A DNA stretch of 64,000 bases from Isoetes taiwanensis (lineage: Eukaryota > Streptophyta > Lycopodiopsida > Isoetales > Isoetaceae), in the NCBI GenBank assembly GCA_021234155.1, contig JAJEKV010000031.1, positions 1,977,614-2,041,613 of the forward strand, given 5' to 3'. Position 1 is the first letter of the stretch. Every line of letters starts with the position of its first letter. Of the stretch, positions 33,921 through 35,865 are shown piece after piece. Below the pieces are notes generated by a model, which saw nothing but the letters and a program-made list of their open reading frames with translations, was not told the origin of the DNA and did no database searches. The translations under genes and the position numbers were made by a program.

Positions 33921-34597
33921 TATAACATCACCGAATTAATACTTGAACATGAAATACAATAGGTCACTAGATAATCTGGATCATATACAAACAATTGTTA
34001 TGGCACATCACTTAACCGCCCAACTGGATCCACTCCCGAAAGGCTATACTAGCAAAGCTTCAAACACTGGCTTAACTGGCTCTTGATCACCACTGCCATA
34101 CCGCAGTCTCCGATCAAAGGAAATAATACACTGGCTTAGAATAATGAATAATATCAATCTTCAACATGAATTGAGATCTCTCTTTGCAGATCTCCACGTG
34201 TAGTCTAGTTTGACCCCTATCCACCTTTTCCGCAATATCTCTCAAACCATAAGGAGTTACAAATGATGCCATCCAATTCTAAAACTAGACTCTGAGGGAT
34301 TTCCAAAAAGATAAGGATCGCTCCATTCTGATCTGTGGTCCACCGAGTTATGACATTTTGAAGTTGCCATTCTTTTTATAGTAGTTGACCCTTTAGGAAA
34401 AGGTAAAAGGTCCTTCCAAAAATAGACATTGCTCTTTTTAATAACAATAGGCTTTTAGAAGAATTATCCCTTAATATTATCCCTTGCCATCTTTTTTATA
34501 TTATTAGGCAACATTGAGAAAATATATTTTATATAGCTTTGCCTTAATCGTATATCACTTTCTCCGTGGACCACTCCCCCATGCTTGTACCGTAACA
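33921..34597 (-). repeat. LTR, - orientation, next to a PBS-like sequence
   Basis: About 677 bases, similar (roughly 85-90% by eye) to the reverse complement of 35207-35865. On the - strand it starts TGTTACGGTACAAGCATG, has GCTATATAAAATAT as a TATA-like box and ends GATGTTATA. Just inside, ATGGTATCAATTGGTATTAG resembles a primer-binding site. Confidence 0.85.
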
Positions 34598-34612
34598 GAA
34601 GATTTGCTATGA

Positions 34613-34790
34613 ACATGTTGAATATAGCAAGATGTACACCTCTACATTGGGAAACTATAAGAGGAAACCTAGAAGCATGCATAGTGCTAATGCAAGTAGG
34701 TACGAAGGAGGACGTCATAGCAACAGATGCCACGTGGTGTACTTCTACTCAATTAGCATCGGACAAAGGGCATCGTCATGTTGCTTTGTT
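34613..34790 (+). pseudogene. TIP1-like ankyrin exon, inverted relative to the rest of the gene
   Basis: Reads ARCTPLHWETIRGNLEACIV, VGTKEDVIATD and QLASDKGHRHVALFL, which is the ankyrin block that should lie between the - strand exon at 36166 and the SNARR block at 33152. It lies on the + strand and ends directly at a (TTCTA)4 run. Confidence 0.85.
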
Positions 34791-35206
34791 TCTATTCTAT
34801 TCTATTCTATAAGTTTGAAACCCATGTTATCTAGCCATTTATTTAAGAGGGTATAGCATTAAATGATGAAATTTGATTTGATGGTTCAAAAAGGAGGCCT
34901 TCCTTACCCAAGTTAAGGTTGGATTACCTGCTTGGATGAATAGAAAGGGGAAATATCTGAGAATGCCATGCTTGTTCAAGTGAGGGACGTTTGCTTGATG
35001 GATCAACATGGGGATTACTCTTGCCCAAGTGCAGAAATTGCCTTTGTGGATCAGTGAGAACGTATTCTCAGGGAGAATAAGATAAATCCCGAGAAGGGAC
35101 GGACTAACACACCTTTCAAAAGTTGATCAACTTCGAAAACGAAGGTTGATAGTTTTCTTCTAGGTTAATGGCGATCGAGGACAATCGATCGTGAGAAGGG
35201 AAGGAT

Positions 35207-35865
35207 TGTTATGGTACAGGCATGAGGGAGTGGTCCACGATGAAAGTGCTATACGGTTAAGACAAAGCTATATAAAATATAATGTTGCCTAATAATATAA
35301 TAAAGATGGCAAGGGATATTATTAATGGATAATCCTTCTAAAAGCCTATTGTTATTAAAAAGATCAATGTCTATTTTTGGAAGGACCTTTACCCTTTCCT
35401 AAAGGGCCGGCTACTATAAAAAGAAGGCCAACTTCAAAACGTCATAACTTGGAGACCACAGATCAGAATGGACGATCCTTACCTTTCTGGAATGCCCTTG
35501 GATTTTAGTTTCAAAATTGGGATGGTATCACTTGTAACTCCTTATGGTTTGAGAGATACTGTGGAAAATGTGGACAGAGGTCAAACTAGACTATACATGG
35601 AGATCTGCAAAGAGAGATCTCAATTCATGTTGAAGATTGATACTATCTAAGCCAGTGTATCATTTTCTTTGATCGGAGATTGCGGTATGATAGTGGTGAT
35701 CAGGAGCCAGTTAAGCCAGTGTTTGAAGCTTTGCTAGTATAGCCTTTCGAAGGTGGATCCGGTTGGATGGTTAAGTGATGTGCCATAACAATTGTTTGTA
35801 TATGATCCAGATTATCTAGTGACCTATTCTATTTCATATTCAAGTATTAATTCAGTGATGTTACA
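35207..35865 (+). repeat. LTR, + orientation, partner of 33921-34597
   Basis: Starts TGTTATGGTACAGGCATGAG and ends GATGTTACA. It is preceded by a purine tract GAGAAGGGAAGGA typical of a 3' LTR. Together with 33921-34597 it forms an inverted LTR pair around 34598-35206. Confidence 0.85.

What the first reader, a model, noticed from the sequence alone, without database searches (positions are those of the whole stretch)
33921..35865. Gene exon flipped between two inverted LTRs
A TIP1-like ankyrin exon (34613-34790) lies on the + strand, while exons before (36166-37075) and after (33017-33152) are on the - strand. The flipped segment is bounded by two similar LTRs in opposite orientation. This is the outcome expected of an inversion through recombination between inverted LTRs.
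Basis: partly seen in the sequence, partly recalled or inferred. Interest (0 to 1): 0.7.

Follow-up and report, generated by a model that had tools for sequence, protein, structure and literature searches.

The report
Small inversion splits retroelement and pseudogene
A plant pseudogene carries one exon the wrong way round because a 1.7-kb piece, broken once inside a retroelement and once in a neighbouring intron, was rejoined backwards; the two flanking repeats are most likely the two ends of that one element and not the cause of the flip.

Summary
The limits and cause given are not supported. The flipped piece is 33172-34858 (33169-34860 with shared bases). It holds the exon and the 5' half of one small LTR element; the right LTR lies outside it. 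The LTRs look like the 5' and 3' LTRs of one insertion: GAAGA beside the left LTR's 5' end is the reverse complement of TCTTC beside the right LTR's 3' end; a PBS-like word follows one LTR, a purine tract precedes the other. In 6 of 6 fetched copies that match both sides, the element is continuous where the window is broken; in 2 of 2 paralogues with this exon, the gene is continuous and the insertion site empty. 7 bp of element and 2 bp of intron are missing; the joins share 3 and 2 bp. Best reading: breaks in the intron and inside the element, rejoined inverted. LTR-LTR recombination needs extra, odd events. The LTR tree alone does not decide. The gene is a decayed pseudogene. Ordinary, but cleanly resolved.

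The parts
33172..34858 (-). inverted segment (minimal; 33169-34860 with shared bases): 5' half of the element's internal region, 5' LTR, one copy of the target duplication, exon 5 with flanking intron
33169..33171 (.). junction J1, gene intron / element internal region; 3-bp overlap (CTT on the gene's sense strand)
34859..34860 (.). junction J2, gene intron / element internal region; 2-bp overlap (TT)
33894..34597 (-). LTR L, read as the 5' LTR of the element (TGTTAC...GTATCA)
33880..33891 (-). primer-binding-site-like word just past LTR L (TGGTATTAGAGT; likeness to the initiator-Met tRNA site is recalled)
   Evidence: read
33169..33893 (-). 5' part of the element's internal region
34859..35206 (+). 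3' part of the element's internal region, ending in a purine-rich tract (35193-35205)
35207..35892 (+). LTR R, read as the 3' LTR of the same element (outside the inverted segment)
34598..34602 (.). target-site duplication copy GAAGA, carried along by the inversion
35893..35897 (.). target-site duplication copy TCTTC, at its original place
34631..34794 (+). flipped exon 5 of the TIP1-like pseudogene; open frame, but acceptor AG changed to AA and donor broken by a 14-bp TTCTA-repeat insertion
33010..33151 (-). exon 6 of the pseudogene (acceptor mutated); far end approximate
35979..36058 (-). exon 4 of the pseudogene (donor changed)
36172..36270 (-). exon 3 of the pseudogene (14-bp deletion, acceptor mutated)
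36381..36519 (-). exon 2 of the pseudogene (2-bp deletion)
36768..37040 (-). exon 1 of the pseudogene (start codon lost, in-frame stop, 1-bp deletion); start approximate

Best explanation
A small non-autonomous LTR retroelement (two ~0.7-kb LTRs, about 1.1 kb between them) inserted into the intron between exons 4 and 5 of a TIP1-like gene or pseudogene, making a 5-bp target duplication (TCTTC). Later the chromosome was cut at two places about 1.7 kb apart: in the intron after exon 5, and inside the element's internal region. The piece between, carrying exon 5 and the element's 5' half, was joined back in reverse by end joining helped by 2-3 bp of shared sequence, losing 2 bp of intron and 7 bp of element. 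Shown here: both junctions, the losses, the empty insertion site in paralogues, and the continuity of gene and element elsewhere at the broken points. Inferred: that the two LTRs are of one insertion (simplest reading), that the breaks were double-strand breaks repaired by end joining and not a replicative template switch, and the order of events (a break inside the element means the insertion came first). The gene is now a pseudogene, so no protein function is expected of the flipped exon.
For: (1) Paralogue L013 is continuous where the window is broken: window 34860 pairs with L013:4918 and window 33171 with L013:4921, leaving 2 bp (GA) unmatched; L014 also has ...ATT GA CTTTCC joined. That is 2 of the 2 paralogues that hold exon 5. 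(2) Element copies are continuous at the matching point: 6 of 6 fetched loci that match both sides (L002, L003, L004, L008, L011, L012) join window 33169 to window 34859 across 7 bp, GTTCAAG in 5 and ATTCAAG in L012. (3) GAAGA (34598-34602) is the reverse complement of TCTTC (35893-35897); L014 holds GAAGA once and L013 AAAGA once, with no LTR there. GAAGA or TCTTC starts at 243 of 63,996 window positions, so a chance match at a fixed place is unlikely. (4) A PBS-like word follows LTR L and a purine tract precedes LTR R (read); L008 has the same purine tract before its 3' LTR. (5) Gene flanks with the exon turned back give one unbroken alignment to L013 (query bases 1-1774 of 1774, 85.8%), against three pieces on two strands for the window as it stands. 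(6) L and R are sisters in the best LTR tree of 19 rows, support 92/78; of rooted sites with three outgroup LTRs, 3 group L with R, 1 groups L with C1034a, 0 group R with C1034a. (7) Overlaps of 3 and 2 bp at the joins; at least 3 at one and at least 2 at the other arise by chance in about 1.8% of random pairs.
Against: The LTR evidence is weak: 92/78 is below the tool's starred level, and pairing L or R with the LTR C1034a is not rejected (p-AU 0.18 each). Searched with L, C1034a scores above R (914 against 884 bits). Among 21 LTRs no base is shared by L and R alone (columns with at least 6 other rows filled), whereas the C1027 5'/3' pair shares 3; other pairs with L or R share 0 to 3. On other measures the C1027 pair looks like L and R (K80 0.118 against 0.099; bootstrap 92, SH-aLRT 89 against 78). 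Three of the nine fetched element loci (L005, L009, L010) do not match both sides of the break and say nothing. The shared sequence at the joins is short. No second individual or species and no reads were available.
Confidence: 0.73

Rival explanations
1. Replicative template switching: same anatomy and same break places, but a stalled fork switched at 2-3 bp of homology to the other strand about 1.7 kb away, copied backwards, and switched back. (With the best explanation this makes about 0.91 for an inversion with one end in the intron and one inside a single element, whatever the repair route.)
For: Short overlaps at both joins; template switching as a source of small inversions is the subject of PMC7954356 (title and start of abstract in a search listing only).
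Against: The balance is nearly perfect (2 bp and 7 bp lost, nothing duplicated), which two breaks and rejoining explain more simply. The two routes are hard to tell apart from sequence.
Confidence: 0.18
2. LTR-LTR recombination: a solo LTR with duplication TCTTC sat in the intron before exon 5, a linearised one-LTR circle of the same family (internal 3' part - LTR - internal 5' part) had joined into the intron after exon 5 in the opposite direction, and the two inverted LTRs then recombined and flipped the 609 bp between them.
For: It gives the same present arrangement, TSD positions, J1 and J2 (reasoned). One-LTR circles of retroelements are known (recalled). The LTR tree does not reject L or R having another nearest relative (p-AU 0.18), L's best match is not R, and L and R share no private base.
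Against: Needs at least three events, one unusual (a circle cut inside its internal region, joined about 260 bp from a solo LTR of its own family), where one insertion and one inversion explain everything. L and R are sisters in the best tree and R's best match outside itself is L.
Confidence: 0.04
3. Assembly error: the piece is turned round only in the assembly.
For: The published assembly that fits in size was built from Nanopore and Illumina reads with optical maps (passages of PMC8566536); a 1.7-kb flip is below optical-map resolution (recalled).
Against: Both joins show short overlaps with small complementary losses from gene and element, a repair pattern; no N in the window; a misassembly through the LTRs would be expected to put its limits in the LTRs, and they are not there.
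Confidence: 0.04
4. The + strand exon is an extra copy carried by a mobile element, with the gene's own exon elsewhere in the locus.
For: The exon lies between LTRs.
Against: No second copy of the exon at the locus; the exon carries its own intron sequence up to the exact break, and the two sides of the gene lack just that piece.
Confidence: 0.01

Closest known systems
Two-break inversions rejoined by end joining in plants (their features recalled; one search listed papers on radiation- and nuclease-induced changes in Arabidopsis, seen as titles and abstract starts only)
   Same: balanced inversion, a few bases lost, short shared sequence at both joins
   Different: natural, about 1.7 kb, one break inside a retroelement so that its LTRs now face each other
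Inversion by ectopic recombination between inverted LTRs (recalled)
   Same: segment bounded by LTRs in opposite orientation
   Different: breakpoints are not in the LTRs; the right LTR lies outside the flipped piece; on the simplest reading the LTRs belong to one element and were direct repeats before
TIP1 / ankyrin-DHHC S-acyltransferase genes of plants (make-up recalled; papers listed; Pfam Ank and DHHC on paralogue L013)
   Same: ankyrin exons followed by a DHHC exon in the paralogue
   Different: the window copy is a pseudogene with many lesions
[quoted passage not shown]
   Same: a rearranged element whose inverted arms could fold as RNA
   Different: here the arms are LTRs of a non-autonomous element; no transcription or small-RNA data were seen

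Membership tests
Inversion by LTR-LTR recombination | breakpoints inside the two LTRs | tested here: not met
   gene and element are each interrupted at 33169-33171 and 34859-34860, outside both LTRs; only the circle-insertion history (rivals) would put hidden breakpoints in the LTRs
Inversion by LTR-LTR recombination | LTRs from two separate insertions in opposite orientation | tested here: inconclusive
   one TSD pair, PBS and PPT on the sides expected of one element, and internal halves that meet at one point in 6 of 6 copies speak against it; the LTR tree leans the same way but does not settle it
Two-break inversion repaired by end joining | balanced inversion with small losses or gains and short or no homology at both joins | tested here: met
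   2 bp and 7 bp lost, 3- and 2-bp overlaps
Two-break inversion repaired by end joining | repair by end-joining enzymes, not replication | not testable with these tools
   needs experiment
Single LTR-retroelement insertion | short target-site duplication with an empty site in relatives | tested here: met
   GAAGA/TCTTC; one copy and no LTR in L014 (GAAGA) and L013 (AAAGA)
Single LTR-retroelement insertion | 5' and 3' LTRs each other's closest relatives | tested here: inconclusive
   sisters in the ML tree at 92/78; alternatives not rejected; no private shared base
TIP1-like ankyrin-DHHC gene | ankyrin repeats plus DHHC domain | tested here: met
   on pieces of paralogue L013: Ank families and DHHC; the window's flipped exon alone gives only a weak Ank_2 match (E 0.061), and the window's DHHC exons were not examined
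Functional gene | open frames and splice sites | tested here: not met
   start lost, stop, frameshifts, several splice sites changed in exons 1-6

The most novel reading that the evidence does not exclude
By turning the LTRs of one element to face each other, the inversion made a ~700-bp inverted repeat with a 0.6-kb loop; read-through from outside could give a hairpin RNA and small RNAs that silence this LTR family elsewhere in the genome, as proposed for Mu killer in maize, here from a plain two-break inversion.
Probability: 0.04. Interest if true: 0.55.

Novelty: new member of a known kind. Interest (0 to 1): 0.2.

Why it matters
Facing LTRs around a flipped segment invite the reading of LTR-LTR recombination. 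Here the breakpoints can be read almost to the base, because both parents (gene paralogues and unbroken element copies) are in the same genome, and they point to an LTR arrangement that is a result of the inversion, not its cause. It is a useful warning example for surveys of repeat-mediated inversions; nothing more is claimed.

Tried and rejected
LTR-LTR recombination between two insertions: rejected in its simple form by the break positions; kept as an unlikely rival in its circle-insertion form. LTR phylogeny as the deciding test: inconclusive. Exon duplication or capture: rejected. A short inverted word in unbroken element copies at the break (CTTG..CAAG, read): too short to mean anything. 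Pfam on one element-internal frame (window 33512-33772 minus): 0 families. A whole-genome script was not possible. An exon-6 word searched with up to 2 mismatches gave 3 places: the window, C1034 and C1044, so no further copy there. C146 and C1059 match exon 1 of the gene more weakly; they were not fetched. One search, a paper search for the genome by size, gave 0 papers; one search found the Isoetes paper. Paper searches for LTR-bounded or end-joined inversions in plants gave no direct precedent in the held library: one search gave 1 paper (on Drosophila), searches gave 0, one search gave 4 (two plant organelle genomes, a mitochondrial insertion, Drosophila; titles and abstract starts only). 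This is a small search and no claim of absence from print. Dating: L-R distance K80 0.099; no substitution rate for this plant is at hand, so no age is claimed.

Full report
Observation. The window is G000:C1036:1977614-2041613 of a 1,658,258,908-base assembly in 1110 contigs. The size fits Isoetes taiwanensis (1658.30 Mb, 204 scaffolds plus 909 contigs; passages of PMC8566536); this identification is an inference from size and piece number. Two inverted arms are present: LTR L 33894-34597 on minus and LTR R 35207-35892 on plus, both TG...CA, 90.9% identical over 680 columns, K80 0.099. Between their 5' ends lies a 609-bp stretch with an exon on the plus strand.

The 609 bp are two things. A genome search splits them (40 of 286 candidates scored): bases up to 263 match the gene paralogues (C1044 at 2-263, C1034 at 1-249), and the other listed matches, apart from the window itself, lie at 261-609 and are copies of a repeat. 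That second part runs straight into LTR R. A search with the stretch left of LTR L (33153-33893) finds the other part of the same repeat, starting at 33169.

The element. Of nine element loci fetched by then, six (L002, L003, L004, L008, L011, L012) match both sides of the break; L005, L009 and L010 do not and say nothing. In 6 of these 6 the part ending at window 33169 and the part starting at window 34859 are neighbours, separated by 7 bp: GTTCAAG in 5, ATTCAAG in L012 (the script prints L012 with two more bases because its alignment stops earlier). Further copies listed were not fetched. LTR L is followed by a PBS-like word and LTR R preceded by a purine tract (read), as for the 5' and 3' LTRs of one element; L008 shows the same purine tract before its 3' LTR, and by eye 5-bp flanks that match but for one base, with an altered LTR end. 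The 5 bp beside the 5' end of L (GAAGA) are the reverse complement of the 5 bp beside the 3' end of R (TCTTC): one target duplication, one half carried off by the flip. Paralogues L013 and L014 hold the site once and no LTR there (L014 GAAGA, L013 AAAGA).

The gene. In L013 (C1044) window 34860 pairs with base 4918 and window 33171 with 4921; only GA lies between, and L014 (C1034) has the same ATT-GA-CTTTCC. Joining only the gene flanks with the exon turned back gives a single alignment to L013 over query bases 1-1774 of 1774 at 85.8%; the window as it stands gives three pieces, the middle one on the other strand. The exon has no second copy at this locus.

So the inverted piece is 33172-34858, plus the shared bases at each end (3 bp CTT at J1, 2 bp TT at J2). 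Turning it back makes gene and element continuous at once; that coincidence is the main argument. Overlaps of this size at both joins are expected by chance in about 1.8% of random pairs, so microhomology is suggested, not proven.

Order and mechanism (inferred). The insertion came before the inversion, since a break lies in the element, and after the split from both paralogues, which are empty. Two breaks followed by end joining explain the near-perfect balance; template switching is possible and cannot be told apart here. LTR-LTR recombination can be rescued only by supposing a solo LTR plus a linearised one-LTR circle joined nearby in reverse; it needs more and stranger events.

The LTR test, told in full. 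L and R are sisters in the best tree of 19 rows (92/78), but pairing L or R with C1034a is not rejected (p-AU 0.18 each), nor is a clade of all three (p-AU 0.34). L's best match elsewhere is C1034a, above R; R's best is L. With three outgroup LTRs, 3 rooted sites group L with R, 1 L with C1034a, 0 R with C1034a. With 21 LTRs no base is shared by L and R alone, while the C1027 5'/3' pair shares 3, and other pairs with L or R share 0 to 3. Two of the 21 (C1034b, C1078) were left out of the tree as short. The LTRs lean to one insertion but do not decide it; the junctions do the work.

The gene's state. Pieces of L013 hold ankyrin repeats and a DHHC domain, the make-up of TIP1-type S-acyltransferases (recalled; papers listed). 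The window copy is dead in exons 1-6: start lost, in-frame TAG, 1- and 2-bp deletions, a 14-bp deletion, splice sites of exons 3, 4, 5 and 6 changed, and a TTCTA-repeat insertion at the flipped exon's donor. Whether it was dead before the flip cannot be told.

Verdict. Observation partly confirmed; the inversion is real on this assembly, its limits and cause are other than stated. An ordinary kind of rearrangement, unusually well resolved.

Noticed in passing
34790-34809 and 32683-32700: Two (TTCTA)n / (TAGAA)n runs absent from paralogue L013. The second is at the edge of an insertion (32687-32798) of which 32702-32794 resembles a repeat beside L013's gene (L013:2574-2665, 74%), by eye a LINE-like 3' end. 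The first breaks the flipped exon's splice donor.
   Followed up: partly
33225-33226: The window element lacks roughly 100 bp that L004 and L008 hold here, 55 bp from J1; coordinates suggest the same for L002, L003, L011 and L012.
   Followed up: partly
25803-28037 and pieces within 38041-39197 (minus): Copia-like gag-pol reading frames, the first a long open frame of 744 aa (named by eye).
   Followed up: no
30640-31098 (plus): Open frame of 152 aa with a Psq helix-turn-helix (PF05225, E 1.3e-9), possibly a DNA transposon remnant.
   Followed up: no
L014 (C1034:24460500-24470400): The second paralogue is also broken: it lacks the stretch matching window 35935-36299 and has two stops in its exon 5 match.
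   Followed up: no
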